Shown here piece by piece: positions 3,320-54,868 of a DNA stretch of 59,909 bases. The stretch comes from Gloeophyllum trabeum ATCC 11539 (lineage: Eukaryota; Basidiomycota; Agaricomycetes; Gloeophyllales; Gloeophyllaceae). The notes under the pieces were generated by a model. That model made no database searches, was not told the origin of the DNA, and worked only from the letters and a program-made list of their open reading frames with translations. The position numbers and the translations under genes are program-made. Within the stretch, counting starts at the first letter, position 1, and each line of letters starts with the position of its first letter. The stretch lies in assembly GCF_000344685.1 (NCBI RefSeq), contig NW_006920410.1, positions 467,421-527,329 of the forward strand, in the 5' to 3' direction.

Positions 3320-6300
3320 ATGGATCACCGCGAACAACGCCCCCCACGCTCCCGGCCCCCTCAGTCCCCGCCTTCCTACAAAGACCAGGCCGACTATGGC
3401 CGACCCTCGCTATCCCCGCTGCCCTACAATGCCTCGCGGAATAACATCTCATTCAATGATATGGAGCGAGGCGAGCGGCAGGGCCCTGTGGAACACGACC
3501 GCCGCATGCCCTCGGCTTATTCGAATTCCGTGGATCCCGAAAGCTCATCTGACGGGCGAGTGCTGAGGAAGAAGAGTTTGGTCAGGCCCGACCGTGAAAA
3601 GATCGAGCCTGGACATCGACAGTGGCACTACCGCACTCATGCTGCGCAGTTGGAGGAGGAAGGGCGAGGTCGGGTAGGCGTTATGCCCTCAAGTAAGTTG
3701 TCAGTCCAGATTGCGTTCAGCGCAGAATCTAATATGTTCCAGCGACCGGAAACGCCCCTATGCCGCCCCAGCTGCGACGAGGCAAGTCGCTGCTGGAGAG
3801 AGACCAGGAGGACGTGCCAGAATCGGGTCTCGCTCTGTTCAGGCGTGGTGGGACACTGCGCCGGCGAAAATCACAGAGTGGTGCTGCAGCTGTACCAGGC
3901 CCGAAGAAGCGCTCGGGTTGCTTCGACAACATTGGGCCGGGACCCAAAGATTCGTTCTTCATCTATTCCTATATCATCACCTGCTTCGTTCCTCCTATTT
4001 TCCTCCGTGCTTGTGGTGAGCAGCTTTTCCGATCTCATGATCTTCGCACCTAACCTATCGTGATAGGCATTAAGACGCCAGAACAACAGCGAGCATGGCG
4101 GGAGAAGATGGGTCTCCTCAGTTTCATCATGATTCTTATGGCTGGAGTCGGTTACCTGACTTTCGGCTTTACTGAGACGGTCTGTGGTCGGCCACCTAAT
4201 CGGTACCACGCCGGCCAGATTACGAACGGCTCGGTGATCATCCACGGGTACGACTATGACTTCACCAGGTTCAAGCACCCGAATGCGCCGCCGATGTTCG
4301 ACGGCACGACCAACCCTCTCGAGACGGGCGGCTGGAACCTCGCGGGCAACGACGCGTCGTTTTTGTTCCAGAAGGTCAATCAGAACTGTGCTGGCTTGAT
4401 CAAGAAGGGCAGCGCCTCGAGTATCACCGGCAGCGGGAATAACTTGGACTGGTATTTCCCCTGTAACGTGTACAACCAGTATGGCACGTCTCCGGCGAAC
4501 TTGACTGGGTATGAGGATTCCACGAATTGTCATACATCGTCGACGGCGAGGAGTGGCTTGGCGCAGATGAACCCTATGGGACAAGTGTACTATACGTGGG
4601 ATGATGTCAAGAATTCGTCAAGGAACCTCGCAGTATACGAACAGTAAGCCATTCCATCTCTCATGACGGCAACAAAGTGTTGATCCCTGAATATGCAGAT
4701 CCGTCTTGGACTTGGGCCTCCTACAGTGGTTGAACAGAGCTCAAGTCGACTACCCGGATATCTTCGACCAGATCAAGTATGCTAACGGCTCCTATAACGG
4801 GAGGGACCTTACCGGCTACTTCCTTCGGACAAACCAGAAGCAGGTCGCGAAATGTCTCGAGGACATTGTTACTGTCGGTTTCATCGACACCAACACCATC
4901 GGATGTGTGGCCTCGCAGGTCGTCCTTTACCTCTCTTTGGTGTTCATCATTGGCGTCGTCGCCATCCGGTTCGGCATGGCCGTCGTGTTCGCGTGGTTCT
5001 TCTCGTCGAAACTCGGGACGTTCAAGCATGAGACGTACGAGCAGCGGATGCAGCGCCAGGCTGAGATTGAGAATTGGACGAACGATATCTACCGCCCGGC
5101 TCCGAGCCAGTACAGGCCCAATGTCAACAAGCATGGGCTGGCGCCGAAGAAGATCGGGAAGAAGGGAGGGTTCTTGCCTAGTACCTCTAGGTTTACGCCC
5201 TCGGACAACCTCCTGAAATCGATGGGTGGAAGGCCGGCCACTGCCTATGGCATGTTGGATAACAAGCGCAACACCTATTACGGGTACGCTCTTTGCCTCT
5301 TTCACACGTAGACATTGTGAGGACTAATCATCTGGTGATTGTAGATCTCGTAGCACCACGTCCTTGGATGCTTCTCCGCGCGGGTCTTTTGTGGACAGCG
5401 TTTGTCCCTTCCCTCTGCACAACGTCGTCCCGCAACCTCCGCCAGATTACGAACCCTTCGGCTACCCGTTGGTGCATACAATTTGCCTGGTTACTGCTTA
5501 CTCGGAGTCGGTGGAGGGCCTGAGGACGACGCTGGACTCCCTCGCAACTACGGATTATCCTAACAGTCACAAGATGATTTTGGTTATCGCGGACGGTATG
5601 GTCAAGGGTGCCGGAAACGACATGACTACCCCAGACATCGTGTTGACGATGATGAAGGAATTCGTCATTGCCCCGGACGAAGTCGAGCCCCACTCCTACG
5701 TTGCCATCGCTGACGGTCACAAGCGGCACAACATGGCCAAGGTATATGCTGGGTTCTACGACTACGACGATGCAACTGTGGAGATGTCGAAGCAGCAACG
5801 TGTGCCTATGGTGTTGGTAGCGAAGTGCGGTAACCCTCTCGAGGCGAACGATGCCAAGCCTGGTAACCGTGGCAAGCGTGACAGTCAGATCGTGCTCATG
5901 TCGTTCCTCCAGAAGGTGATGTTCGACGAGCGCATGACGACTATGGAGTACGAGTTCTTCAACTCGATCTGGAGGGTCACCGGTGTCAGCCCAGATCGGT
6001 ACGAGATGGCGCTCTGCGTGGATGCGGATACGAAGGTCTTCCCGGATTCGTTGTCTCGTATGGTTGCTGCTATGGTTCAAGATGAGGAGATTATGGCGCT
6101 CTGCGGTGAGACTAAGATTGCCAACAAGGCGGAGACGTGGGTCACTATGATTCAAGGTGAGTAGTTGAGTTGTGCCTTGTGTGGACTAACCCTGAAGACC
6201 TTCCTAGTCTTCGAGTACTACATCTCTCATCATTTGACCAAGGCATTCGAATCCATGTTCGGTGGTGTTACTTGTTTGCCAGGGTGTTTCAGTATGTATC

Positions 6301-7949
6301 GCATCAAGGCCCCCAAGGGTACCTCTGGCTACTGGGTTCCCATCCTGGCCAACCCGGATATTGTGGAGCACTACTCCGAGAACGTCGTGGATACACTGCA
6401 CAAGAAGAATCTGTTACTCCTTGGAGAGGATCGATACCTCACGACGCTCCTGCTCAAGACGTTCCCCAAGCGCAAGAACATGTTCGTACCTTCGGCCGTT
6501 TGCAAGACTATTGTCCCCGACACGTTCCACGTCCTCTTGTCTCAACGTCGTCGCTGGATCAACTCGACCATCCATAACCTGGCGGAGCTGCTACTCGTCC
6601 GTGATCTCTGTGGAACGTTCTGCTTCTCTATGCAGTTTGTCGTAGGGATGGAGCTCGCCGGAACGCTCGTTTTGCCTGCGGCCATCAGTTTCACTCTTTA
6701 TCTGATTATTATTTCCATCATTCCTGGCGGCACCAACACGACTATCCCTCTTATCTTGCTGGCTATAGTGCTGGGTCTACCGGGTCTACTCATTGTCATC
6801 ACGTCTCGCAAGATCGCCTACCTCGGATGGATGATAGTCTATCTCCTTTCCCTGCCTATCTGGAACGGTATCCTTCCGGCGTATGCATTCTGGCACTTCG
6901 ACGATTTCTCCTGGGGTCAGACTCGACAAGTCGCCGGTGATAAAGGTGGCGACCATGGCGACAAAGAGGGAGAGTTCGACTCTTCCCATATTATGATGAA
7001 GCGGTGGGCTGAGTTCGAGCGCGAGAGGAGATGGAAGAGTGGTACGCAGTCAAGGGATTCTACCTGGAACGACTTGCGGTCTGGCTCGCCGAAGCGGTAT
7101 GTCACGCATCTTTTCGGGGGCATCCTTGTGCTGATTGTTTAAAGGCCCGATAGTAACCGGTACTCCACGGTTTCCACTGCGGAGACTTTCCAGCCCCCTT
7201 CGCAGGCGTATGATTCCAGCACGTATAACGACTCGAACTACAGCGGAGGCCAGCGGCCCAGATATGACAGTAACCAGCTGCTCATGCTGCCGGCGCCGTT
7301 GGCTGTGAATCAGAATAAGCCCATGCCTCCAACCCCCGCCACTACGTCGTCCTCGTTGACAGCGGGGGCGCGGTCAAGTGACGAGACCTACTCAGGGCCG
7401 TCGGATGCTTATGGTTCAAACCAACGACTGACTCCCATCAGTCCTCAATCCGACCAGCAATACGATAACCAAGAGGACCCATATGCACACCTCCCTTCGC
7501 CTATGGCGCGCTACCAGGGCCCAGGGTTTGAGTCTGCTGTTCAGCGGGCAGCTGGCAATAATGGCGTTTTGCGCAGCACGACGGTGTCCAGCCAGCACCC
7601 AGGGGAAACGTTCAACCCTTACTATAACGCCCAGCCCCAGGCTGTTGGGTACGAGGATCAACAGTACCAAGGATACTCTGCCGAGCCCGAGGAGATGCTA
7701 GCAGGGTCGAGTAGTCTCCCTCCACCGCCCCCGCCGAATCCAAGGTCGCGCGGTGTGAGCTTGATGGACCGTGGGCCAGTGTCGGGTCCTGACGGCGTCC
7801 GTCGGGTCTCAAGGCCCCAAGGTCGGCGACCGACATCGCAGGCACCGCCTCAGAACCGCTACTCACGCTCTCAGTATCCCAATAACCTGCCACCGGGTGC
7901 TGCAGCTCCACAACCAAATTACGGTAGCGGATATGATGCATACCGGTGA
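3320..7949 (+). CDS. chitin synthase, class IV type
   Basis: Membrane family-2 glycosyltransferase that polymerises GlcNAc from UDP-GlcNAc into wall chitin at the plasma membrane. Seven exons (3320-3692, 3743-4015, 4067-4643, 4699-5283, 5345-6156, 6208-7096, 7145-7949) join exactly to 1437 residues. Order: a Pro/Ser-rich N-tail, a conserved [13 protein letters not shown] segment, two N-terminal membrane regions around a cytochrome b5-like lumenal stretch (about residues 240-400), then the catalytic domain with VDAD (about 826), GEDRYLT (about 945) and QRRRW (about 984). C-terminal membrane helices and a long Pro/Gln/Tyr-rich tail follow. N-terminal architecture and lack of a myosin motor point to division 2, class IV (Chs3-like). 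The tail makes it longer than most class IV enzymes. Every junction is GT-AG and no break is seen. Confidence 0.95.
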
Positions 7950-13828: not shown

Positions 13829-14090
13829 GGTATACGGCCAAAACGTGAAGGACGTAGTTTCCAGTCGTTCACGTCTTCCTAGAAAGATAATATACAGAGA
13901 TGTAAGGTAGAAATGCGTCGAGCCTCGGAGCGATGTACTGTTAAGGTGCAGCTGCCGACAACTATCGAAACATAGATCGACGGAGATCTAAGTCTCGGCA
14001 ACCGCCGCGTCCTCCCAAGTTCCCTCTTCGCCTCAGAACATATCATCTGCTAATTCCTGAGGCTGCAGGGAACACAGCCCAAAGGCTTTC

Positions 14091-15334
14091 ATGTTTGCTG
14101 CACGCCATGGCGGCAGTCTTCTGCGGACGTGTCTCTCGCTGAGCTCTAGACCGGCCACTGCGCCATCCAAGGTCTCGTTTCTGCAGGGCTCCAGCTCACA
14201 AATTCGCAAATTGGCAACAGAAGTTGCAGCCCCGAACCAAGTCCATGAAGCGTTGACGCGGACGTCGAATCTCTTCAAGACATACAAGCCTATTACTCCT
14301 GGTCGTCGCCACCTACGACGACCCCTCAATGAACACCTTTATGAAGGACGTCCCCTGCGTCTGCTGACGGTGCCGCTAAGGAAGAAAGGCGGACGAAACA
14401 GCACTGGCCGTATTACCGTCCGCCATCGCGGCGGCGGCCACAAGCGGCGTATACGGCTTGTTGACTTTATGCGCACCGAGCCGGGCCCCCACCAGGTCGT
14501 GCGCATTGAGTACGACCCCGGGAGGTCGGCACACATCGCACTACTCTACAATCCGGATCCCAACGTGAGTGGCCGGAAGAAATGGAGCTATATCCTTGCG
14601 CCCGAGAACATCAAGGCCGGAGATGTTGTGGAGAGCTTCAGGAACGGCGTGCCCGACGGGTTAGTGCCGGGGTACGTCGACTCGAAGGACAAGCGCGGCA
14701 AGCTTCTCGACACTGGCGTCGGGAGCGACACGTCCACAACCACCGCCTCACTCGCGCTTGGCTTGCTACGTTCGCGCACGATCAAGCCGGGCAACGTCCT
14801 GCCTTTGCGGCTCATCCCTACCGGCACTATCATCCACTGCATCTCCCTCCACCCCGACAAGCCCGGTATCCTCGTCCGGGCGGCGGGCACATTCGCGCAG
14901 GTCGTGGCGCACGACGACGTGGGAAAGTACACGCTCGTGAGGCTGCAGAGCGGCGAAGTGCGCAAGGTGCTGCAGGACTGCTGCGCGACGGTGGGGAAGG
15001 TCAGCAATCCGCTGTGGAAGAACCGTAGCTTAGGCAAGGCGGGGCGCGCTCGGTGGCTGGGCTGGCGGCCTACCGTGCGCGGTATGGCTATGAATGCGTA
15101 CGTGTCGTGCGATATCTTATCACTGGCCACCTTGCTAACTGTCTTTTTCTTAGATGTGACCATCCCCACGGAGGAGGTCGTGGTAAGTCGAAGGGTAACA
15201 AGCAAGCGCGATCTGTGTGGGGTTGGCTTGCACGTGGCCGGCGCACGAGGAAGCCCGGTCCCAAGGGTCCCAAGAACAGCAATAAGATGGTTGTACGGGA
15301 GAGACCTAGGGGGAAGGAGAAGCGGTCTAACTAG
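14091..15334 (+). CDS. RML2: mitochondrial large-subunit ribosomal protein uL2m
   Basis: Component of the mitochondrial 54S subunit next to the peptidyl-transferase centre. Two exons, 14091-15097 and 15154-15334, give 395 residues. The N-terminal 50 or so residues are basic and Ser/Ala-rich, as expected of a mitochondrial presequence. The two L2 domains follow: [20 protein letters not shown] (oligonucleotide-binding fold), then the translation-protein SH3-like part ending in [16 protein letters not shown], which contains the conserved His of the L2 catalytic-centre loop. The intron falls just before that loop (donor GTACGT, acceptor TTAG). The long overlapping open frames on both strands are shadows of this GC-rich exon. 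Confidence 0.95.
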
Positions 15335-15399
15335 ATCCTGAACTAAGCACCCAGGATCGTGCCGTACTCGTGCTGGATTCTGCTTCGCTATAGGCCCTG

Positions 15400-16103: not shown

Positions 16104-16431
16104 CGCGAGAATGCGGCACAGGGCGAACGTGCGCAACTCGAAACCATCCGACATCGCAATCGAATCTTTTATTGGGCACGGCATTTGCCGGCGGTGCAAT
16201 GATTTTGATCGATCCCTCGCATTCCTTGCTCCTCGACCCCTTCCTCGACATGGACGTCCTCATGCAATAACCCTGGCAGCAACCGCTCTACTTTACCTGC
16301 TGCCATAGACAATAGAAGATACCCTCTAGACAACAGAGGCACGCAGTTATAATATTAATATTGGGCTTATAGAGGATTTCCTGGAATTTGCTTTGATTTC
16401 GGATAGACGGCCCTGCATAGAAGTGATAGAC

Positions 16432-17676
16432 ATGGCGCCATACGCAGTGCCGACCCCTCCGACGGCAAGCCTTCCTTCGCTGAAACGGCTGGCAGAGCAC
16501 CCGGTTTCGCATATCAAGCAAGCTCTGCACAACTTGCGCGATATTTATTTCATTCCGATACCGCCTGCACCGACGAAGCTGCGCGTACCAAAGCGGCATC
16601 TGAAGACGCATATACACGATACGTCGGTGCCAGACTCTGGTTATGCATCCGCGGAGGAGGAGGACGATGCAGTTGATGTTGAAGAGGAGCGGGACCTTAC
16701 TCCGGAGTTCGCGGATGAAGTAGATGCTGCCGACCCCGACATCCTTCGTTCCGACCCATTCGAACGTGCCTTTGCTATCAAATGGTTGACGGGATTCATC
16801 TCCCGCTCGGATGAGTGGATCTCGGCAGCTACTGATGAAGTAGAGGCAAACGAGCGGTATGACGTGCTAGACGATGTCACGGCTCTGCTGGCCAAGTTCG
16901 CCAGCGACGACCTCGAGGAGACCGGTTCTCTGACTCGCAAATTCTCATTCCCCACGGCCGAGACAGCAAGCGCGACTTGCATCGAAGTCGAGCTCAACGA
17001 TGCCGCACTTTCGAAGGAAGATCACACCTCAGTCGGGTTGCAAAGCTGGGCGAGCTGCATCATCCTTGCCAGAAGGATGTGTCTAGTACCCTGCAACTAT
17101 GGACTAGACAGGCCTGCGAGAGTGCTGGAGTTAGGGGCAGGCACAGGCCTGCTCAGCATCGTGGCCTCCAAGCTCCTCGGCTCCGCATCCCCCGGACCAG
17201 TAATATCCACTGACTACCACCCGGACGTTCTAGCGAACTTACGAAAGAACGTCGAGACCAACTTTGCGGACTTCCAGCCGGCTCCGGTCGATGTGCACAA
17301 GCTCGACTGGGAGCATCCGGATTACTCTGCACCCCTCGACCGGCCGTTCAACGTTATCCTTGCGGCGGACGTGATCTATCACCCGGAACATGCCAGCTGG
17401 ATCAAGCGCTGCGTGGAGCGGCTGCTCGTCCGCCCCTCCGCCGAGAACGGCGGGAGAGGTGGGATATTTTGGTTGGCGATTCCCATGCGTACTGTCGGGC
17501 GACATGAGGGAATGGGTGATACCGTTGGCGCGGTCTTTCCTGCCGCTTCTGTGGTCTCCTCCGTGACGGAGAGGGCAGTTCTAGCTATCTTGAGCGAGGA
17601 GCGAGTCGAAAGGCAGGAAGGAGTCGGACGAGCGGACGAAGGCGGGTACAGGATCTTTAAGATCGGCTGGATTTAG
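16432..17676 (+). CDS. family-16 (lysine-type) protein methyltransferase
   Basis: Seven-beta-strand S-adenosylmethionine-dependent methyltransferase of the METTL21/EFM type (Methyltransf_16), most of which methylate lysines of translation factors or chaperones. It is a single exon of 414 residues from MAPYAVP; an in-frame ATG lies 13 codons upstream at 16393. An acidic linker (residues 75-105) precedes the catalytic half. Motif I is VLELGAGTGLLSIVASKLL (about residue 230), motif post-I is STDYHPDVLANLRKNV, and the D-x-x-Y motif is ADVIYHPEHASW. An LQSW-type family signature (GLQSWASCIILARR) precedes motif I. The natural substrate cannot be told from the sequence. Confidence 0.88.
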   Translation: MAPYAVPTPPTASLPSLKRLAEHPVSHIKQALHNLRDIYFIPIPPAPTKLRVPKRHLKTHIHDTSVPDSGYASAEEEDDAVDVEEERDLTPEFADEVDAADPDILRSDPFERAFAIKWLTGFISRSDEWISAATDEVEANERYDVLDDVTALLAKFASDDLEETGSLTRKFSFPTAETASATCIEVELNDAALSKEDHTSVGLQSWASCIILARRMCLVPCNYGLDRPARVLELGAGTGLLSIVASKLLGSASPGPVISTDYHPDVLANLRKNVETNFADFQPAPVDVHKLDWEHPDYSAPLDRPFNVILAADVIYHPEHASWIKRCVERLLVRPSAENGGRGGIFWLAIPMRTVGRHEGMGDTVGAVFPAASVVSSVTERAVLAILSEERVERQEGVGRADEGGYRIFKIGWI

Positions 17677-17949: not shown

Positions 17950-18973
17950 TCACCGGTTCCCGAGTCCGCACAACGCCAACGCAGCCCTCATGGTATCTTC
18001 GTCGACGTTTTGGTCCTTTTGCTGTGCTTGTAAGGTTCCTCGCTTGCTGGTATCTTCCGTGTAGCCAAAGCTGTCGTTGGGAGTGAGGGCTTCGTGCACC
18101 TCCTCGTCGGTATAGTCGTCGTCGTCCATATCCATGTCCCCCGCACTGCTCTTACTGCATTGCGTCTCCGTATCCTCCTCCGGCTCCTCCCTCAACGTCG
18201 CAAATAAACCCCCTTCTGCCAATTGCTGCTTAGTCGATACCCGTGCCACCGCGCACGCCCACTCCAGCGTCTTCCGGTTGCCCGCGTTTTTCGTCTTGCC
18301 GAACTCGATGTAGTGGTATTCGCGCACGGGGGATGATGGGGACTGGATGGGCGACGAGAGCATGCTGTCCCATAGGGTGGCATTGGGCCGCGGGTTCGGG
18401 CGGCGCGTGGGCGTGCTGGGGGGTTGGATGCGGAGCTCGGAGCGCGAGGCGATCTCGTCAAGGGAGAGGATGCGTGATGGGGCCGAGGCACGGGAGTGGG
18501 AGTGGGAATGGACGCGCGATTGTGGGCGCAACATGGCTTTACCTGCCTTGAGGGAGCTGCTGACGGACGCGCTGTTGTCCGAGGACGATAGGGACCGGGT
18601 AGTGTTGGTGCTATTGCGTAGGGCGACTTTGCGTTCCGACTGGCGTTTGTTCTGGAACCAAATAGTTACAGATCGTATTTCCCTGGAGGTGGCATACGTC
18701 AGCGCAAGAGTACCTATACATAGGTGGCAGAGGTGCGTACATCCCAGCTTGGTCGGCCAAGGCCTCTCGTTGCTGACGGGTAGGATGGGAACATTGGTGG
18801 AATAGTTGCTCGAGCATAGCCAACTGCTCGTGTGTGAACCTCTTGCGCGTCCTCCTGGCTGACTCCGAGCTGATAGTGGTGTCGTCCGACGACGTGCTTG
18901 CAATAGATGACATGCGCGATAGGGGTGCCGGTGCTCGACGTTCATGCTGGAGGTCGAAGTGAACAGCGTCCAT
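17950..18973 (-). CDS. homeodomain transcription factor
   Basis: Nuclear DNA-binding protein of 321 residues from two exons, 18741-18973 and 17950-18682, with a GT-AG intron inside the homeodomain. The homeodomain spans about residues 40-97: a basic arm RRTRKRFT, helix 1 EQLAMLEQLF, and recognition helix VTIWFQNKRQSERK, with K in place of the common first R of WFQNRR. A Ser/Pro-rich region and a highly acidic C-terminal stretch (DMDMDDDDYTDEE) follow. The spacing is that of a typical, non-TALE homeobox. Agaricomycetes carry several such genes, some tied to fruiting; I cannot say which one this is. The 3' end faces the methyltransferase gene at 273 bp. Confidence 0.9.
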
Positions 18974-19700
18974 GGCGGTCGAGGTGGTCGAAGGCAAGAA
19001 AGGTCCTGGACGTGTCGGGAGAGCCTGCGTACGCAATTATACGCACCGCGAAGGTTATGTAACGGGACGCGAGCGTGACATGCCAGTCGCGGACGCGTAC
19101 AAACTCAACCTCCCAGGCGCGCCGCGCGTATTGACGCGTAGCACGTGACCGTGCTCGAACCACAGCGCTTGCCTTTTCTGGAGATGGCTATTTGTCTTCT
19201 TTCATTTTGAATATAGTTCCGTAGTGGAGCGCATATTTGCAATTTCAATCATGCGCCGTCTCGGAGGAGAGACATGCGTACGGTGCGTTTCTGCACGACA
19301 TATGAATTGAGGGCTTCCAATATCGTCATATAGAGCATGGGCATGGGACATGTGGTAATGCGAACAATATACGATGAAGATTCACGAAATACACGAGAAC
19401 TTTTACCGTTGCGCGTACAGCTGGAAAGCTCCGTCGGTAATCTGAAAATCAGTGGGATGAGGTCCCACTGGTGATATCCTCGAAAGCAGGACGGTCTGGG
19501 TTCCTCCGCTTACAGAATCATTCCTCCTGGACTTGGATGCGTCCCCTACCCGCATATGTGGCTCATTTGATGGAACAGCATCGGTCCAAGGATGACCAAT
19601 GACCTCATCTGGTTGTTATGTTAGTATTTGTAGACCGGCTACCTCCCGCACGGCGATAGCACAATGGAAAACAAAGAACTGCTGGTACGGTTAGGACGAG
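18974..19700. other. intergenic upstream of homeobox gene
   Basis: This is promoter space of the homeobox gene and the 3' flank of the P450 on the same strand. A 69-codon open stretch on the minus strand (19403-19609), preceded by a good acceptor AACAACCAG and ending in TAA, has coding-like composition. It has no start codon and no recognisable relative. Confidence 0.4.
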
Positions 19701-21990
19701 CTACGGACTTCTCCGCCTTAACTGTAACCTGTACCGTGGCGAAGGCGTAAGCACAGATCACCTTACCACCCTTAAGACAGACTTACTTCACAGATCTGCT
19801 GTGACTGCACATGTATCCAAACCACACGTCTCTCGGTCGCCCGCCGTTACCACCCATCTTCAGGTCATAATTTAATACGATGTGTGCCATAAGTGCCTTC
19901 ATGACGTAGGCTACGATAAAACGACCGGGCTGTTGCAACATTGAATATCGCAACATTCGCGCTAGCAGTGAGATTAGACTTACGCTAGTCAAAAGCAACG
20001 AGCATGATGTCGAATTCTGAAATAGCTGGCGAGAAATAGGACATACCAAGCATGTTTCCCATATCCCCAGGGCAGATAGTGCAGTTTAGGTACCACAAAT
20101 CCATCCTCCCCATTAGCGAGTGAGTTAGAATCATCATAAAACCTCCAGCCATTGAATATTTCTGGATTGGGGTAGTGTCTCTCGTCGAAATGAACGTCCA
20201 AAGCGGCAGAGATATAAGAGCCCTCAGGGACATATGTCCCGTCGGAGAGGCGAATTGGTTTGACTGCCCGACGAGCATGTGTGACTGGTGGAGCAGAGGT
20301 TAGTTTGCAGCATGAGGGTGAGCACCGCAAAATACCTGAACCCAATCCATTCACTCGCATGGACTCCTTAAGGAAGCTGTCCATTTTGACGAGACGATCG
20401 AGAGCAGCTTTGGACCATCCGAACGAATCAATGATGCAGTGCGCTTCTTCTCTCAGCGGCCCTGCATAGTCGGCATGCACAGCCATATTGATGATAGCTT
20501 GCGTGAAGGACTGCGAGCGAAGTGAGACCAAGGTCAGCTGTAGCAAAGTGACCCACCAGCGACGAGGTATGAGTCGAAGCACCGTTTACGGCTAAAAGTC
20601 GTATAGTCAAATCATGCGGATCCGATTGAGTACCTTTTGCTATGTCCATCAGCCAAGAAAGTACGTCGTTCTGAGACCATTCAGTACACACATCCAGAGA
20701 CCGCAGCACAGTACTGACCGGCTTATTCGACCAGTCCTTTCCATATTCCGAAATAGCTGCTTTCCTATCAAGTATCATAGGGAGGTAGTGCTTCATGGAA
20801 GCGGCTACAGTCTTTGGAAGTCGCGTCACGAGTCGCCCAACCAGGCTAATGGAGATTAACATTTTAGCAATGGGACGAATTGGAAAGGTATCAGATGCGT
20901 ACGGTCTCAAGAAGCTCGGGAATGTATTTATGAAAAACCCGATGATGAATCGCTCAAGTGCACTTCGGGAGGCAATTTCGATGTAATTTTCATTCCTACC
21001 TAGACACAAAGATGAAAAGGTCCACAGGGCAGAAGAGAGAGATGACACCTACATAGGGAGGGGCCAACTATGATGCGATTGAATGTCCTGGACATAACCT
21101 TGACTAGGGGTTCCACGACATCCATCTCTTTCCACTCATCTAAGACATCAATATAATCATGCTTCATTCGAGGCCAACCACCTGTACGCACCATCGCAGT
21201 GTCTACCAATCTGCTCCTCAAAGGCTAGAAGTACCTCTTCCGTCGTTTCAGAGACCATGTGTTCGAGATTGCGGCGGAGCTTTGAAGTGAGTTAGTCAGA
21301 GGTCGAGATGTCCTCGCCGCTCGGAATTACTTACTTTAACTTTCAACACGGGGACGTGGTAAGGGTCGAAATGAAGATTCTCTCCCATCGTGTACTTCAT
21401 TTGCAACTCCTGTTGCCACCAAGTCACTTCTCCGAACTCTGGTATGGCTCATTTACGACGTACGTACCTCGTAGGCAGACTCTAGCAGGGATAACGTGTC
21501 ATCTGGCAATGAATGAATCTCCTTCACTGTTCGCGTTGTTAGGATGGGGTCTTCCGTGTTTGAGTTGAAAGTGTTACCTAAAGTATCCCCGGCGACTACG
21601 TAGAGCCAGCTGTTCCAGCGAGGCAGCTTGAATACACCCTGAGACTTGACCTACATTCAGATGAGTAGTGAATTTGAATGCATCTGAAGTCATAGACCTT
21701 GCGGTAGCCCTCAGCTGTCATCTTCCTTGCGTGGAAGAAGAACCGGAAGCCTCCGTAATACGGCCCCAACCAATGAGGATAGCCAATAGGTGGTGCACCC
21801 ATCTGCTTACATGAATTATAATCAGTGTTGCTAGCAGATGACGGGAAATATCAGTAGAGTAGAGCCTGACCTTTGAGAAGAGAATGGATAAAGCATGGAA
21901 CATGATCACAAGATTGACAAAGCAGGATAGAGAGAGAAGTGGATCTCCAGAAAGCCAATGCCACACAGCAAAGACAAGGGGAAGATGCAT
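19701..21990 (-). CDS. cytochrome P450 with a one-nucleotide exon
   Basis: Heme-thiolate monooxygenase, membrane-anchored at the ER. The N-terminal anchor (MHLPLVFAVWHWLSG, start 21990) is followed by YPHWLGPYYGG, LQMKYTMGENLHFDPYH, an I-helix region NGASTHTSSL, ExxR as KESMR, VTHARRAVKPIRLSDG, and the meander. The heme loop is LPWGYGKHAC-PGRF. The heme Cys codon is split: TG ends an exon at 20047, its C is base 19984, and CCC GGT starts the next exon at 19929. Introns 19985-20046 (GTATGT...CTAG, 62 nt) and 19930-19983 (GTAAGT...ACAG, 54 nt) leave an exon of one base. The last intron, 19729-19786, leads to a short exon ending VKLQLRRRSP at 19701, a normal P450 C-terminus. It resembles fungal P450s acting on terpenoid or alkaloid skeletons (KHACPGRF type); the substrate is unknown. 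Confidence 0.85.
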
Positions 21991-23336: not shown

Positions 23337-23955
23337 NNNNNNNNNNNNNNNNNNNNNNNNNNNNNNNNNNNNNNNNNNNNNNNNNNNNNNNNNNNNNNNN
23401 NNNNNNNNNNNNNNNNNNNNNNNNNNNNNNNNNNNNNNNNNNNNNNNNNNNNNNNNNNNNNNNNNNNNNNNNNNNNNNNNNNNNNNNNNNNNNNNNNNNN
23501 NNNNNNNNNNNNNNNNNNNNNNNNNNNNNNNNNNNNNNNNNNNNNNNNNNNNNNNNNNNNNNNNNNNNNNNNNNNNNNNNNNNNNNNNNNNNNNNNNNNN
23601 NNNNNNNNNNNNNNNNNNNNNNNNNNNNNNNNNNNNNNNNNNNNNNNNNNNNNNNNNNNNNNNNNNNNNNNNNNNNNNNNNNNNNNNNNNNNNNNNNNNN
23701 NNNNNNNNNNNNNNNNNNNNNNNNNNNNNNNNNNNNNNNNNNNNNNNNNNNNNNNNNNNNNNNNNNNNNNNNNNNNNNNNNNNNNNNNNNNNNNNNNNNN
23801 NNNNNNNNNNNNNNNNNNNNNNNNNNNNNNNNNNNNNNNNNNNNNNNNNNNNNNNNNNNNNNNNNNNNNNNNNNNNNNNNNNNNNNNNNNNNNNNNNNNN
23901 NNNNNNNNNNNNNNNNNNNNNNNNNNNNNNNNNNNNNNNNNNNNNNNNNNNNNNN
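23337..23955. other. assembly gap (619 N)
   Basis: A run of N inside the fold-back element. It is flanked by 408-bp copies that look identical, so its size is probably not real. Open frames reported across it are meaningless. Confidence 0.99.
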
Positions 23956-29017: not shown

Positions 29018-31516
29018 ATGTGCCAAGGAGTCATCGCCATCTTACTTCTGGTGCTTCCTCTCCCCCTGCTATATCGCCGATGGAAATATGTGTCGATTGC
29101 CTACATCCAGGGACCCCATGTTGACTCCTTCATTCTGGGTGAATATGGTGTACGCCTTAGCTGAACTGGGCTTACGCCAGCTTCCAGGTAATTTCCCAGA
29201 ATACTTCCAAAATGAAGTCGGTCAATGTGAGTTTGAGTGGCAAGAGCGCTTGGGAGCCGTTTATCGAATCAAGGGACTGTTCGGAGTATGTCCATCATGA
29301 TCACCTTTCGGTATATCCATTGAACCTCGTTTATGTCGTAGGAAGATCGCCTGATGATCGCAGACCCTAAGGTAAATACGTAGTCGTCTTCGAACGAAAT
29401 CCGACGCTCACTCGTGAGCTAGGCTCTTCAGCATGTGTACCAAACCGCATCCACTCAGTGGCTGAAACCTACGATACGACGAGAGATCACTCGTATGTAT
29501 ATAGGGAGAGGTATCGCATGGGCCGAAGGTACGGTCGGTCTCGATGACTCTGAACGTTGCATTGAAATCCCGTGGTAGGGGAAGATCACAGAAGACATCG
29601 TAGAATAATGATGCCTGCGTTCGGTAACATCGAAAGTAGGGGCATGATGCCCTTATTCCGCGAGACTGCTGATCGAGTAAATGCACGCGATATTTGATCT
29701 GTCAAGTCTGCTGACGAAGGCATAGATGTGCGGGCATTGGAAAGACATCATCAGTACCCTCGGGGACGGGAAAAGTGCCAGTATTGACGTGGCTGACTGG
29801 CTTTCGCGTGCCACGCTGGATGCAATTGGAGAAGGTGGGCTTCACAGCATATACTTTGTTTGCAGTTGAGACATATTCTCGGCAGCTGCCTTCGGAATCC
29901 AGGTGAGATAACATATCCTTTCAGAAATGATTGTATACCCACCGTGGGCCGTACATACTAGTTTGGAACCATGGAAAATAAAGACGACAAACTTGCGCGC
30001 AGCTACTATAGTCTGCTGTGGGCTCTCACTCCATAGGTCAATCTTCGCCAGAGTTGACACTTTTTGACATAGGATGCAAGCCTTTGGGCTGCCCACCAGA
30101 GTGAAAATATTTGCGCAACAGATCTCAGCCTACTTTCCGGCATGGGTGTTTCGTCTACTCGAGCGCCTCCCCTCCCGTAGTCTTGAAAGGCTGCGAGAAG
30201 TCGCGTATGAAGGTAACAGGGTCGCGGAAGAGCTCGTTCAGAGGAAAATGGAGGCCCTCAGGATAGGCTCTGAAGCGCTCGACAAAGACGTCATGAGCTT
30301 GCTAGGTACGGCCTTGCTGCGAGTTGTGTTTTTTGTTCCCGCGTGAATATTGAATCGCAGTCGAAGCAAATCTATCCGCAACTCCTGAAAATAAGCTGAA
30401 CAACGAGGAACTCTACGCTCAGATGAGGTACATGAGATAACGCCACTTCAGCTGACTTCTTTAACGCTCACATTTCTTGTCAGGACAATCCTAGTGGCAG
30501 GACGTAAGAGGATTAATCGACTGATCCCAGTAAAAATCCTATGTACTAATGCTACAGCTTAGACGAAACGTCAGGGAACACGTTGGCATTCATTTTATAC
30601 GAACTGTCGAAGAATCCTTCTATACAGACCAGGATTCTGGAAGAAATCCATTCCACCTTGGGTGTATCTCAGGAATATACTATGGCTCAACTTGATCGTA
30701 TGCATTACACGCTGGCCGTAATCAAGGTGAGCAACTCGCGCCAGCCATGGCTGTGGCATCTGTAGATCCCGGACCGCACACAGGAGGTTCTTCGCGTCCA
30801 CCCTGTCGTATATGGACCATTCCTGGTAGCCAAAGAACCGGATGTCATACCGCTATCCAAGCCAATCATCAGCATCGACGGGAAGCCTATCTCGACGATC
30901 CCAGTTTCTGCGGGACAGTATATCCACATTTCATTGGCTGGGTATAATAGGTACTTGTTCTCATCTGTATCCCGAAGTGGTACACTGATTATGCGCTTGG
31001 CGAAGGCTCAAAGATGTCTGGGGAGAGGATGCCCACGAGTTTCTACCGGAAAGATGGCTGGAAATAGAGGAGGGAAGGAGAGAGATTCATAGCCTCTTCG
31101 GTGTCTATTCGAACCTGTATGTCGTCCCGTTTCCCTCAGATACATCTGCATGACTAATGGCGAGCCGCAGAGGAAACTTTGTCAGCGGAGCGATTTCTTG
31201 CTTAGGGTAAGTTATTGCTGGATGTACCCTTACAGGACTAACGGTCTCGCTATCCTCGTCGTATAATGATACCCAGCTGGCGCTTCGCGTATGTCATCCT
31301 GCTTCTCATATTCAATTCCCGAGCTCACCCATCACTTCTCACAGGGTCATAGAAATGCAAGTGTTTTTGGTGGAGATCGTGCGGAATTTCCAGTTTTCTC
31401 TGCCTCCCAACGGGAAAAGGGTTATCAGGGCTACGAGCGGTGTCATGGCGCCAGTGTTGGAAGGAGAGGTCGAGAAGGGGAAACAGTTGCCTCTTGTGAT
31501 GGAGCTTCGTGATTAG
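29018..31516 (+). CDS. cytochrome P450 monooxygenase
   Basis: Membrane-anchored heme monooxygenase with about a dozen exons. The anchor (MCQGVIAILLLVLPLPLLYRR) is followed by NFPEYFQNEVGQCEFEWQ, GEDRLMIADPK, LKPTIRREITRM, HRRHRRIMMPAF (the C-helix region that contacts heme), I-helix AGHETSGNT (split by an intron near 30500-30560), and ExxR EVLR at 30784-30795. PERW follows, then the heme loop FVSGAISCLGWRFA with the Cys codon at 31199-31201. All junctions I followed are GT-AG and in frame, so the gene looks intact. One oddity is that the usual Arg or His two residues before the heme Cys is Ile (GAIS-C). It ends EKGKQLPLVMELRD. It belongs to the large basidiomycete CYP families acting on hydrophobic substrates; the substrate is unknown. 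Confidence 0.88.
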
Positions 31517-43433: not shown

Positions 43434-45187
43434 ATGTCGTCCGACGCAGATGCATACAGCTACGCATATACTGAGCCTACCCTATCGGCTCTGCTCTCTG
43501 TCTCGTCTTTCCTGGTCGCATTGAATTTATTTAGAGTGCTAGTTGAGAATGTTATCTCTGGTGCTGGCCTCCTGGGCGAGATATCCGTAGGTGTCATATT
43601 TGGGACGCCTCTAGCCGGCATTTTGGCCCAGGAGTGGATGGCAGCTTTCGAAATACTAGGATACATCGGACTATGTTTAATGGTACTGGAAGGTATGCCT
43701 CTCTGTATCAAGACAGATTCGTTGGACTGACCTATTGCCTCGATATAGGTGGCCTGAATACACCTCTGTCCCATGCTCTGCCTGCACTGCCAATATCACT
43801 TGCGATCGCATGCACGGGAATGATAGCTCCGATAGTGAGCTCTCTTGTCTATTTCAGTCTGATTCTTCGCCCCGGGTATTCTCTCCTGCACGCGTTTGCA
43901 GCGGGTGCTGCGCTGAGCTCTACCAGCCTCGGTACTACGTTCTCCGTGCTGAGTTCGGTCAAAGGCGGTATCGGCGAACAGATAGGCCAGAGTAAACTTG
44001 GAGCTGTCCTTATGAGTGCGGCCATGGCGGACGATGTCGTCGGACTTATCCTACTGAAAGTGGTGGTTGTCCTCGGCTCCTCGTCGTCTACCTCTGTGGG
44101 ATGGACCATCGGCAGGCCACTCTTAGCGTCTTTTGGTATGCTCGCGCTGTCCTGGATACTTGCGAAATGGTTGTTCGCACCTTTGGTGTCCATCCTCCTG
44201 CGCTTGACGCCCGAAAGACTGAAGCATGAAGTCAATCTTGCAGTCATCGTCCTCCTGACTACGGGTTATGTTGCAATCGCAAGCCTGGCAGGCACTTCTC
44301 CCCTGCTCGGGGCGTTCATTGCTGGTATAGTGCTCGCATTTCTTTCCGGCTCTCCCGCCGCTTCTAGCGCATCCGATGCGCTTTCTACTGCAACTGCACC
44401 GAGCTTCCGCTACACATTCGAACAATATATCAACCCAGCGCTATCTTACATCTTACGTCCGATATTCTTTGCCAGCATAGGCTTTGCCATACCCGTGAAG
44501 ACCATGTTCAGAGGACCCGTGGTATGGAAAGGGATGGTATATGCTATCATAATGACTGGTGCCAAGATCCTCTGCGGCGCTTGGCTCCCCGTGGTCGACA
44601 ATCTATCGTCATGGTTGACCAGACGAAAGCGCATGGCAGCCAAATCTACGAAATCCACCGAGAGCGGTCTCAAAATGAAGGACTGCAAAGCAGAGGAATC
44701 GCCAAAGAAGGCGCCTCATCCCCATCCTACTACAATTTCTGATAAAAATGCCAAGGCGGCGACTCCTCCCACTCCCCCAGCCTCACCGACGCCCAAGGGT
44801 AGGTTTGTAGCATCTGGGCCCAATAATGTCGTACAACTAGAGTCTTCACCTTCAGCGGAAAGCAGTCCAGACGGACCCTCCTCGACTGCCGTAAGATCGC
44901 TGGAGCAAGAGGCTACGATCTCGACGTCGTCTTCAGAACCCGCCCCGTCTCCCCCACCGACGTCCTTACTCTTACCAACCTCCTTGCTTGGCCTCGCGAT
45001 GGTCGCTCGTGGCGAAATTGGCCTGCTGATAGCTCAAGTCGCGAAGACCGCCGGGCTCTTGGAAGACGAGCTGTTCCTGGTCTGCATATGGGCGACCGTA
45101 CTCTGCACGATTTTCGGTCCGGTCAGTGTTGGTTGGGTTTGCCGGAGATGGGAGAAGGTTGGTGCTGGTATGGGGAGGTGGGGTTGA
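43434..45187 (+). CDS. CPA2-family cation/proton antiporter
   Basis: Na+(K+)/H+ exchanger of the CPA2 type, a multi-pass protein of the plasma or vacuolar membrane. Two exons, 43434-43692 and 43749-45187, give 565 residues; an alternative ATG is three codons upstream. About twelve hydrophobic helices are visible, with GEISVGVIFGTPLAG, MVLEGGLNTPL and the transport-site Asp pair in MADDVVGLILL (typical of electrogenic CPA2/NapA-like proteins). Later come LAGTSPLLGAFIAGIVLAF and PIFFASIGFAIPV. A long cytosolic Ser/Pro-rich loop (about residues 400-500) interrupts the domain before the last helices (LGLAMVARGEIGLLIAQVA). It is followed at 204 bp by an MFS gene on the same strand. Confidence 0.9.
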
Positions 45188-52558: not shown

Positions 52559-54868
52559 TCATGCACTCCCGACACCCATCCCCCCCTCGCCCAGCCTCCT
52601 CCCCATCCCAAACCCAAACCCCACGTCCGTCCCGCCAAACCCAAACCCATACCCCTCCAGCCCGAGCCAGCCGCTGTTGTTCACATTGGTCGGCGTCGGC
52701 GTGCTCGCCGCGCTCGCGGGCCCACCCAGCGGGCTCTGCGCAAAGCAAAACTGGCGCACAAACGCCGCGTACGAGCTGTCCTTCGTGCTCGCGCCCCGCG
52801 GCGTCGTCGCGCCCGACCCCGCCGACTCGGCGGCGTCCTCGCCGTGCACGGGCGTCACGACGCCCGAGTCCGGCGGCGAGCTCTCCGCGGAGCTCATGCT
52901 CGGCGTCGGCGCCTCGTCCTTCTCCTTCTGCACCGGCACGACCGTCGTCACGAACTGCCCGCCCACGATCTCGCCCACCATCTTCACCTCCACCTTCTCG
53001 TGGTGCTCCGGCTCCTCCGCGGCTTCCTTCTTCTCATCCTCGTCCTCGCGCATATACCGCCCGTCCCAATAAAACGCCTCCTTCCACTCCCGCTCGACAT
53101 CCTCAATCCGCTGCTCGCACTCCTGCTCCTGCTCCTTCGGACTGGCCACCTTCGGCGGGCTCCCAAACCCAACCGGGCTGAAGATCCCACTTCCGTTCCC
53201 CCCAATTGGACTGAGCGGGCCCGCGGGCTGCATGCCCACACTGGGCACGCTCGGCGCGGCGTAATTCGTCAGCTTGAGCTTCATCGAACCGCCCCCGCGG
53301 CGCTGGGGCGGCGGCGGCGGCGGCGGCGTGTACGGCAGCATCCCCGGCAGCACCGACGGCGGGCCCGAGTTCGTGCGCACGAGCGCGGCGGGCTTCACCG
53401 CCGGGACGCTGTCCAGCGACACGGACACCCCCCTGGACGCGGGCGGGCTCGGCTTCTCGTCGGTGCGGACCTGGCCCGTGACCGGGGTGGTCCTGAGCGT
53501 GCTCGGCGCGCGGAAGCTGCCCTGCTGGCTCGAGCTGAGCACGGGGCTCTCGGGCGTCTTCACGGCGGGCGCGTCCACGACCTTCCTGAAGCCGACGCGG
53601 TAGTTCTTCCCGTCGTTGTTGTCCCACCACTCGCCGACGCCCGGCGCGGTGTAGCGCCCGACCATGTAGAGCGTGCGCTCGTTCAGGCGGTGCTCGTAGT
53701 CCTCGAGGCGGATCACAAAACTGAAGCGGTCCCACTGCGGGCGGCCGTCCGGGGGCGGCATGTCGTCGCCCGCCTGCGAGGACGCGTGCGCGATGATGCC
53801 GACCGCGTCGCCGACGGTGCGCGTGCGCGGGAAGGGCGGCGGGATGCTCGGGAGCGAGACGACGTGCTTGCAGGTGACCTCGGACGTGGTCTGCCAGTCG
53901 TCGAGCGTGAAGCGCACGGCGACGGCCTTCTCGAAGGAGAGGTTGCGCACGAGGACGGAGCCGCGCAGCGTGTAGGGCCGCGTGCGCGGGAGCGTGACGG
54001 TCTCGAGGTGGATGTTGGCGTAGGGCGAGGGGCTGGGCCGCGGGATGGGTGATGTGACGGCGGGGCTGGCGTCGATTTCCCAGTGCGAGTGGGGTTGAGA
54101 CGTGGACGGTGATGCGGGCGAGAGCGGGGGCATGGTGGGGAAGGGGTATCCGGAGGACTCGGCTTCGGTCTCGGTCTCGGTGTCCTCGCCTGGCTTGAAA
54201 GAGAGGAGACTTGCGGGCTTGCCGGAGGACTTGAAGACGCGGACGTGCTCGATGGGGCGCTTGGCGTCGGCGTTCTCCTCGTCGTCGTCCTCGTCGCCAA
54301 AGTGCACGGACTTGACTGACGGCGTGGAGGGCGCGGACTGGGTGCGTATGTGGAGGGCGGGGATGTTGGGGGAGGAGGTGGACGACTTGAGCGACGATTT
54401 CAGGGGCTTGCCGTTGGATAGGAGGATGACGGGGGAGGAGGGCGTGCGGTGCATTAGCGAGGGCCGCGGGGAGAATGGGCGCGGAGACGGCGGGCCATAC
54501 GGAGAGTTGCGGGGGGAGGAGCGTGGGAAGGGGACGAGGAGCGGCTGGGGTTGCGGGGAGGGTCTGCGCGGGGCGAGGTTCGCGGTGTCGACCGAGAGGC
54601 CAAGCGAGTTGAGAGCGGGCCCGCCCTTGCGCGTGACGGCGTCGAGCGGCGGGGGAATCGCGTCGTCGTCGTCGTCGTCTTCGTCCTCCTCGGACGAGCG
54701 AAAGTGGAACTTTTTGGCGGGGGCGGCCTTGCGGCGGGGGAGGGCGCCGAGCGAGGCAAAGGCGCCGTCGCCGCGCTCGCTGGAGAAGGTGGCGGTGGAG
54801 GAGCGGGTGCGGCGGTGCTGCGGGCGGAAGACGGGGGCGGCGTCGGTGGCCGGCGTCGAGTAGACCAT
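52559..54868 (-). CDS. CBM21 protein phosphatase-1 regulatory subunit
   Basis: Glycogen-targeting subunit of PP1 (Gac1/PPP1R3 type): it would bring PP1 to glycogen particles and promote glycogen synthase activation. A single exon of 769 residues starts MVYSTPATDA. The N-terminal 280 residues are disordered and Pro/Ser-rich, with an RVxF-type PP1 docking motif KSVHF at 186-190 followed by an acidic stretch. The CBM21 domain spans about 283-428: VRNLSFEKAVAVRFTLDDWQ, then DRFSFVIRLEDYE and the signature WWDNNDGKNYRVGF. The C-terminal 340 residues are low complexity with an acidic coiled segment near 600-640. The very high GC leaves long open shadows on the opposite strand. The N-terminal tail and late RVxF position fit fungal members. 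Confidence 0.9.
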   Translation of the reverse strand: MVYSTPATDAAPVFRPQHRRTRSSTATFSSERGDGAFASLGALPRRKAAPAKKFHFRSSEEDEDDDDDDAIPPPLDAVTRKGGPALNSLGLSVDTANLAPRRPSPQPQPLLVPFPRSSPRNSPYGPPSPRPFSPRPSLMHRTPSSPVILLSNGKPLKSSLKSSTSSPNIPALHIRTQSAPSTPSVKSVHFGDEDDDEENADAKRPIEHVRVFKSSGKPASLLSFKPGEDTETETEAESSGYPFPTMPPLSPASPSTSQPHSHWEIDASPAVTSPIPRPSPSPYANIHLETVTLPRTRPYTLRGSVLVRNLSFEKAVAVRFTLDDWQTTSEVTCKHVVSLPSIPPPFPRTRTVGDAVGIIAHASSQAGDDMPPPDGRPQWDRFSFVIRLEDYEHRLNERTLYMVGRYTAPGVGEWWDNNDGKNYRVGFRKVVDAPAVKTPESPVLSSSQQGSFRAPSTLRTTPVTGQVRTDEKPSPPASRGVSVSLDSVPAVKPAALVRTNSGPPSVLPGMLPYTPPPPPPPQRRGGGSMKLKLTNYAAPSVPSVGMQPAGPLSPIGGNGSGIFSPVGFGSPPKVASPKEQEQECEQRIEDVEREWKEAFYWDGRYMREDEDEKKEAAEEPEHHEKVEVKMVGEIVGGQFVTTVVPVQKEKDEAPTPSMSSAESSPPDSGVVTPVHGEDAAESAGSGATTPRGASTKDSSYAAFVRQFCFAQSPLGGPASAASTPTPTNVNNSGWLGLEGYGFGFGGTDVGFGFGMGRRLGEGGMGVGSA

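What the first reader, a model, noticed from the sequence alone, without database searches (positions are those of the whole stretch)
19929..20048. A one-nucleotide exon appears to complete the heme-cysteine codon of a cytochrome P450
On the minus strand the heme loop reads GGG AAA CAT GCT TG at an exon end (20047) and CCC GGT CGT TTT at the next clear exon start (19929). Splicing these directly loses the frame and the Cys, giving a stop within a few codons. The 116 bases between them parse exactly into GTATGT...GACTAG (62 nt, 19985-20046), one C (19984), and GTAAGT...CAACAG (54 nt, 19930-19983). That gives TG+C+CCC = Cys-Pro and restores KHAC-PGRF. Both introns have consensus donors and typical basidiomycete lengths, and the rest of the gene is intact through its C-terminal exon. 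A single-base exon is well below the size that exon-definition models handle; isolated 1-nt exons have been described in plants, and I know of no described fungal P450 case. Alternatives are a one-base deletion in a pseudogene, or retention of the second intron, which is open in frame and would insert 18 residues after the heme Cys.
Basis: partly seen in the sequence, partly recalled or inferred. Interest (0 to 1): 0.88.

Follow-up and report, generated by a model that had tools for sequence, protein, structure and literature searches.

The report
One-base exon completing P450 heme cysteine
In a wood-rotting fungus, three related cytochrome P450 genes appear to carry an exon only one base long that supplies the last letter of the codon for the heme-binding cysteine, and the same spot is garbled in most public gene models of their nearest relatives in other mushrooms, so the feature is probably real, old and widely missed.

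Summary
The parse is real, with corrections. The window lies in the Gloeophyllum trabeum genome. The gap 20046-19930 is 117 nt (62+1+54), not 116; direct splicing keeps Cys-Pro but shifts the frame. Of the frame-keeping parses I enumerated, only the one-base exon C (19984) restores H-x-C-x-G-R. Two further P450 genes of this genome (contig C19; 43-46% identical, introns largely diverged) have the same TG|intron|C|intron|CCN layout; a genome-wide pattern finds just these three loci. Six related control loci have one intron there. A spliced aligner barred from tiny exons gives the heme string of the NCBI model, which lacks the cysteine (KHAWYPGRF). In the clade, 17 of 20 NCBI models are broken exactly here, against 2 of 235 database proteins outside; the broken ones span five orders of Agaricomycetes. 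Two read-assembly proteins of the clade read HACPGRF. Inferred mechanism: intron definition and stepwise removal of two short introns. No G. trabeum transcript and no DNA of other species could be examined. One-base exons are known in plants (APC11, VPS55), in mitochondrial genes and, since February 2026, in Fusarium CYP621A P450s; this is an independent nuclear case at another site, in Basidiomycota, probably through gain of a second intron.

The parts
19701..21990 (-). cytochrome P450 gene (conceptual 509 aa, PF00067), 15 exons in my model; the start at 21990 is a guess, the NCBI model P0001 starts at 21802
   Evidence: exon model; Pfam E 4e-30; P0001 100% identical over 91% of the query
20047..20284 (-). 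exon 12 (238 nt), ends with TG, the first two bases of the heme-Cys codon
19985..20046 (-). intron 12 (62 nt), GTATGT...GACTAG, phase 2
19984..19984 (-). one-nucleotide exon 13: C, third base of the heme-thiolate Cys codon (TG|C)
19930..19983 (-). intron 13 (54 nt), GTAAGT...CAACAG, phase 0
19787..19929 (-). exon 14 (143 nt), begins CCC GGT CGT TTT (Pro-Gly-Arg-Phe)
20037..20042 (-). cryptic donor GTCCTA four bases into intron 12; joined to 19929 it gives the in-frame string KHA-WY-PGRF of the NCBI model, without the heme Cys
   Evidence: run without tiny exons; P0001 sequence

Best explanation
The heme-ligand cysteine codon of this P450 is split over two exons by a phase-2 intron and closed at once by a second intron: TG at the end of exon 12, C as a one-nucleotide exon 13, then CCN at the start of exon 14. 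Both flanking introns are short (62 and 54 nt) GT-AG introns that could each be recognised by intron definition. Because the acceptor of the first and the donor of the second are one base apart, they cannot well be occupied together, so the two introns are removed one after the other; either order leaves intact sites. The arrangement is shared by two G. trabeum paralogs and probably by most of the clade; it most likely arose when a phase-0 intron was gained one base downstream of an older phase-2 intron (TG|C) that related P450s still have alone. Shown: the sequence, the parse and its sharing by three genes. Inferred: that the spliceosome uses it, the order of removal, conservation in other species, and the origin by intron gain.
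For: Spliced alignment of three relatives (P0029, P0041, P0013) picks the one-base C exon at the heme Cys in 9 of 9 runs on the three loci and in 0 of 18 runs on six control paralog loci; score gain 17.5 (19.5 in one run that also had a spurious second one-base exon). With very short exons disallowed, the window locus gives KHAWYPGRF, the heme string of NCBI model P0001. Among enumerated frame-keeping parses, 1 of 5 (window), 1 of 20 (C19B) and 1 of 13 (C19A) keep H-x-C-x-G-R, each time the one-base exon. Pattern AGCGTRNGT..YAGCCNGGNMGNTT: 3 hits in the genome, these loci; with T or G as the base: 0 (A, which would give a stop, was not searched). Paralogs C19A/C19B: 377 of 489 aligned residues identical, dN about 0.15, dS 1.5-2.0, so constrained, while corresponding introns align little or no better than shuffles. 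Four control loci have a single phase-2 intron TG|C CCN at the site. Clade of 15 rows supported 100/100. In the wider clade 17 of 20 NCBI models are broken here against 2 of 235 database proteins outside, Fisher p 1.4e-21 (recount 68). The breaks have the expected form: in 7 models Cys is replaced by Trp (TG + G of the first donor), in 3 Cys is followed by Val (TGC + GT of the second donor), and in 5 an upstream piece is joined straight to PGRF.
Against: No transcript of G. trabeum was examined. Three of 20 clade models (P0003, P0122, P0233) read CPGR intact, so some members may lack one intron or were annotated from RNA. Single broken models do not decode simply: P0002 KHAWAGRF, P0228 KYPWPGRF, P0236 HTCPQPGRF. 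If any GT counts as donor, 1-10% of shuffled gaps give a parse. The first intron of the window gene has no YTNAY branch-point match at usual distance and the second only one 39 nt from its end (11 of 70 control introns also lack it). DNA of other species could not be fetched. The origin by intron gain rests on one genome.
Confidence: 0.9

Rival explanations
1. A single intron is spliced from the cryptic donor GTCCTA (20042) to 19929; the mature protein reads KHA-Trp-Tyr-PGRF, as in the NCBI model, and is a P450-like protein without heme thiolate.
For: In frame in all three G. trabeum genes, because donors GTAYGT hold a second GT at +5; it is the string of the annotated model P0001 and, in the chimeric model P0121, of C19A.
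Against: Needs weak donors (GTCCTA, GTCCCA, GTTGAC) beside consensus ones, removes the heme Cys in three genes of which the C19 pair is measurably constrained, and leaves the shared AG|C|GTRAGT unexplained in introns that have otherwise diverged.
Confidence: 0.04
2. Only intron 12 is spliced and intron 13 is retained, inserting 18 residues after the heme Cys.
For: Open in frame in the window gene (18 residues) and in C19A (19 residues).
Against: C19B has an in-frame TGA in the second intron; the two read-assembly proteins of the clade show no insertion; the insertion would break the HACPGRF loop.
Confidence: 0.02
3. The gene is a pseudogene with a one-base deletion, or the assembly lacks a base.
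For: In the related single-intron loci the downstream exon starts with one more base, AG|C CCN.
Against: The same offset with a perfect AG|C|GTRNGT occurs in three loci on two contigs; the reading frames are otherwise intact and the C19 pair has dN/dS about 0.1; the gap is about one intron longer (117-144 nt, against 52-67 nt in C1a, C1b, C1c and C19z).
Confidence: 0.02
4. The double intron is a stwintron (nested intron that splits a splice signal), not two introns around an exon.
For: Stwintrons are known in fungi and also need consecutive splicing (abstracts in the listing).
Against: Here no splice signal is interrupted: both introns are complete and an exonic base remains between them; a stwintron would leave none and the frame would be lost.
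Confidence: 0.02

Closest known systems
One-nucleotide exon of Fusarium CYP621A P450 genes (Nelson & Syed 2026, PMC12940212; I read parts 1 and 2 of 3 of the text)
   Same: Fungal P450 genes; one base between two short introns inside a conserved motif; garbled by annotation; conserved over a gene family.
   Different: There the base is G, the central base of the Gly codon of the PKG motif, in ascomycetes, and RNA reads confirm it. Here the base is C, the third base of the heme-Cys codon, in basidiomycetes, in three paralogs of one genome, and the related genes suggest gain of a second intron rather than the base loss plus cryptic-exon rescue proposed there.
Arabidopsis APC11 single-nucleotide exon (Guo & Liu 2015, PMC4674806; passages read)
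   Same: Constitutive one-base exon between two introns; the authors favour intron definition with consecutive (recursive) splicing.
   Different: Plant gene, 422-nt intronic stretch; shown by constructs and cDNA; the kind of base did not matter for splicing there.
Conserved 1-nt microexons of plant APC11 and VPS55 (PMC8831610; passages read)
   Same: Conserved over deep lineages, missing from reference annotations; the donor after the base is well conserved (GTRAGT) in VPS55, as here in 3 of 3 genes.
   Different: Plants; RNA-seq and RT-PCR proof; gains and losses traced in many genomes.
Mitochondrial one-base exons: adjacent group II introns in fungal rnl (PMC12308204; passages read) and placozoan cox1 (PMC5436844; search listing)
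   Same: One exonic base between two introns; in rnl related species carry only one of the two introns, so adjacent insertion looks likely there too.
   Different: Mitochondrial genes; self-splicing-type introns in rnl; not the nuclear spliceosome.
Fungal stwintrons (PMC12403724: abstract in a search listing; PMC5639578: abstract in that listing, and a term search of its text that hit only its reference list)
   Same: Two adjacent short introns removed consecutively.
   Different: In stwintrons an inner intron interrupts a splice signal of the outer one and no exonic base lies between.

Membership tests
one-nucleotide exon | exactly one exonic base between two introns with their own GT and AG ends | tested here: met
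   three loci, at sequence level
one-nucleotide exon | the base is needed to keep the frame and a conserved motif | tested here: met
   the only enumerated frame-keeping parse with H-x-C-x-G-R in each of three loci
one-nucleotide exon | presence of the base in mature mRNA | not testable with these tools
   no G. trabeum reads; P0029 and P0041 (short read-assembly contigs) read HACPGRF but their genes are unseen
one-nucleotide exon | conservation in relatives | tested here: inconclusive
   DNA: 3 paralogs in one genome. Other species: only the imprint in protein models, 15 of 18 NCBI models from other species broken at the site
cytochrome P450 (PF00067) | profile match and heme motif FxxGxxxCxG | tested here: met
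   PF00067 E 4e-30. The conceptual protein reads WGYGKHACPGRF: G, C and G in place, the first F is W
CYP512 family (P450 nomenclature) | about 40% or more identity to named members (rule recalled) | tested here: inconclusive
   P0062 (PHACADRAFT_246674; that protein id is named CYP512E in passages of PMC3899305) is 38% identical
stwintron | an inner intron interrupts donor, branch point or acceptor of an outer intron | tested here: not met
   both introns complete, one exonic base between

The most novel reading that the evidence does not exclude
A one-base exon arose once, by gain of an intron one base downstream of an existing one, in the ancestor of an agaricomycete P450 clade, and has been kept through five fungal orders in most members. 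The in-frame choice between the proper donor (Cys) and the donor four bases on (Trp-Tyr, no heme ligand) then acts as a splicing switch that makes active or heme-less P450.
Probability: 0.12. Interest if true: 0.85.

Novelty: new member of a known kind. Interest (0 to 1): 0.62.

Why it matters
It would be the first one-base exon in Basidiomycota that I could find in the held library (searches; two searches listed only 20 of 731 and 12 of 28 papers), and it splits the codon of the heme-ligand cysteine, the residue that defines a P450. A tiny-exon blind spot would explain a clade-wide annotation error: the heme cysteine is missing or garbled in 17 of 20 NCBI models examined. With three paralogs, single-intron relatives in the same genome and apparent conservation across orders, it gives a tractable system to test how a spliceosome handles an exon of one base and how such exons arise.

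Tried and rejected
Pseudogene, intron retention, WY donor and stwintron readings were tested and set aside (see rivals). Tandem duplication of the intron as origin: the two introns of each gene align no better than shuffles in C19A and C19B (fractions of shuffles as good 0.43 and 0.34) and weakly in the window gene (0.08). The broad pattern missed C19A, whose first intron is 86 nt; the shorter pattern finds it. Megablast of the gene against plasmids: no match. No PDB chain matched P0001 at E 1e-10. No G. trabeum transcript, and no DNA of other fungi, came from these tools; metagenome scans are capped at 0 and were not tried. dS between the window gene and the C19 pair could not be computed (saturated). 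My first enumeration for the window gene had a coordinate slip of one base and returned nothing; one search repeats it correctly. The enumeration covers GT-AG introns of 38 nt or more within 36 nt either side of the gap. The spliced aligner leaves out one-base exons in one phase (1 to 2) and once called a spurious one-base exon in the divergent N-terminal part of C19A. Limits of the counts: the searches listed the best 120 of 660 and of 387 proteins; of 310 fetched proteins, P0258-P0310 were left out of the tree and counts. The clade was taken as the smallest group holding a chosen core that included broken models; the motif columns were left out of the tree. The 235 outside proteins include read-assembly proteins, P0170 (CLGR) counted as intact, and P0054, whose model lacks the residues before CPGR, likewise.

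Full report
What is there. The window is in the genome of Gloeophyllum trabeum: the database protein P0001 of strain ATCC 11539 is 100% identical to the conceptual protein over 91% of its length, and the contig lengths agree (4,293,775). The gene runs on the minus strand from about 21990 to 19701 with 15 exons in my model, all 14 introns GT-AG and 46-68 nt, no frameshift, 509 codons, PF00067 E 4e-30. The start codon is a guess; the NCBI model starts at 21802.

The observation. The heme-loop parse is as described, with two slips. The gap is 117 nt (62+1+54), and a direct join of 20047 to 19929 keeps Cys-Pro but shifts the frame, KHACPVVLS*. An enumeration of one- and two-intron parses (GT-AG, at least 38 nt) that keep frame and downstream sequence gives 5 for this gene; one keeps H-x-C-x-G-R, and it is the one-base exon.

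Alignment with other proteins. To avoid circularity I aligned three other proteins to genomic DNA with a spliced aligner of my own: P0029 and P0041, from short contigs of read assemblies (sources 'jgi' and 'lgn'; what these labels stand for is recalled), and P0013, another G. trabeum P450. For the window locus each run chose the C exon at 19984. With very short exons disallowed, the best model moved the donor four bases (GTCCTA, 20042) and gave KHA-WY-PGRF, the string in the NCBI model P0001. So the public model is what a program produces when it may not use a one-base exon.

Paralogs. Two tandem genes on contig C19 (modelled from 126877 to 129137, C19B, and from 129645 to 131936, C19A; N-termini incomplete) carry the same arrangement: TG|GTACGT...CAG|C|GTRAGT...CAG|CCT. 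Their two introns are 65 and 69 nt (C19B) and 86 and 57 nt (C19A). Exon lengths match the window gene nearly throughout. C19A and C19B share 377 of 489 aligned residues with dN about 0.15 and dS 1.5-2.0; to the window gene they share 169 of 396 and 182 of 397 aligned residues. Corresponding introns align weakly or not better than shuffles (fractions of shuffles as good 0.02 to 0.27), yet the AG|C|GTRAGT core is kept in all three. The pattern AGCGTRNGT..YAGCCNGGNMGNTT has three hits in 35.5 Mb, these loci; with T or G as the base it has none, and the reversed control has none (A was not searched). In shuffled gaps an equally good parse occurs in 3 (window), 0 (C19A) and 19 (C19B) of 5000; with any GT as donor in 249, 63 and 520. 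None of 70 other introns of the nine modelled loci contains YAG-N-GTRNGT.

Control loci. Six related loci (C1a, C1b, C1c, C6, C15, C19z) gave no one-base exon in 18 of 18 runs. In four of them (C1a, C1b, C1c, C19z) one phase-2 intron splits TG|C CCN; in C6 and C15 one phase-1 intron lies in the preceding Ala codon. The simplest history is gain of a phase-0 intron one base downstream of the old phase-2 intron: the gap grew from 52-67 nt to 117-144 nt. Base loss with rescue by a cryptic exon, as proposed for CYP621A by Nelson & Syed, is not excluded, and the unrooted tree does not fix the direction of change.

Relatives in other species. In a careful tree of 61 proteins with the motif columns left out, the window gene, the C19 pair and 12 others form one side of a branch with 100/100 support. 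In a wider FastTree of 266 rows the group has 25 rows: 3 conceptual, 2 read-assembly proteins and 20 NCBI models. Of the 20 models 17 lack an intact C-P-G-R in place: in 7 the Cys is Trp (P0001, P0002, P0006, P0007, P0049, P0121, P0228), in 3 Cys is followed by Val (P0004, P0005, P0230), one reads CPQPGRF (P0236), and in 6 the upstream piece is cut away (P0010, P0025, P0227, P0229, P0232 join straight to PGRF; P0231 resumes later). Trp is what TG plus the G of the first donor would give; Val after Cys is what the GT of the second donor directly after TGC would give. Intact are P0003, P0122 and P0233. Two of the 17 (P0001, P0121) are from this genome, so 15 of 18 from other species are broken. 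Outside the clade 2 of 235 database proteins are broken (P0240, P0248), Fisher p 1.4e-21. The broken models come from Gloeophyllales, Agaricales, Boletales, Polyporales and Russulales (orders looked up for one species in each of nine genera; Termitomyces is recalled as Agaricales). This is an imprint in protein models, not DNA, and three of the broken strings (P0002, P0228, P0236) do not decode simply.

Transcript-like evidence. P0029 (400 aa on a 1,594-nt contig) and P0041 (471 aa; longest contig 2,392 nt) lie in the clade, are uninterrupted where the G. trabeum genes have about ten introns, and read HACPGRF. They look like cDNA, but their genes are unseen.

How it works. Both introns are of ordinary length for these genes (median of 70 control introns 56.5 nt), which fits intron definition. 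All three second donors are GTRAGT, against 19 of 70 control donors, as if the intron side compensates for a missing exon side; with three genes, two of them found by a pattern that favours such donors, this is weak. The first intron of the window gene has no YTNAY at usual distance and the second only one far from its end; 59 of 70 control introns have a match. With the acceptor and donor one base apart the two introns are most likely removed in turn. The order is unknown.

What is known. Nuclear one-base exons: Arabidopsis APC11 (PMC4674806, passages), plant APC11 and VPS55 (PMC8831610, passages), and Fusarium CYP621A P450s (PMC12940212, with RNA reads). Mitochondrial ones: fungal rnl between two adjacent group II introns (PMC12308204, passages) and placozoan cox1 (PMC5436844, listing). 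Library searches for one-base exons and for basidiomycete microexons and P450 introns (two of the lists were cut) showed no basidiomycete case; Phanerochaete P450 exons were reported down to 6 bp (passages of PMC1184071). So this is an independent member of a known kind, at a more critical codon and with a different probable origin.

Noticed in passing
C19:126877-131936 (locus L039): The NCBI protein P0121 looks like a chimera: identical to C19B up to residue 327 and then reading the C19A sequence, with the KHVWYPGRF string at the heme site. Two tandem P450 genes appear merged in the public annotation.
   Followed up: yes
window 30565-30726 +: Another P450 exon (PF00067 positions 276-329) lies about 10 kb away on the plus strand.
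   Followed up: no
window 18600-19000 -: Downstream neighbour on the same strand reads like a homeodomain protein by eye (TIWFQNKRQSERK; motif recalled). Pfam found nothing in the stop-to-stop frame 17953-19104.
   Followed up: partly
window 23337-23955: A run of 619 N about 1.3 kb upstream of the gene.
   Followed up: no
window 6165-7139 +, 14061-15338 +, 16330-17673 +, 43547-45184 +, 52562-54910 -: Of nine open frames scanned (of 63 listed), five match Pfam: chitin synthase, ribosomal protein L2, a lysine methyltransferase family, a Na/H exchanger and CBM21. Nothing among these suggests a biosynthetic cluster.
   Followed up: partly
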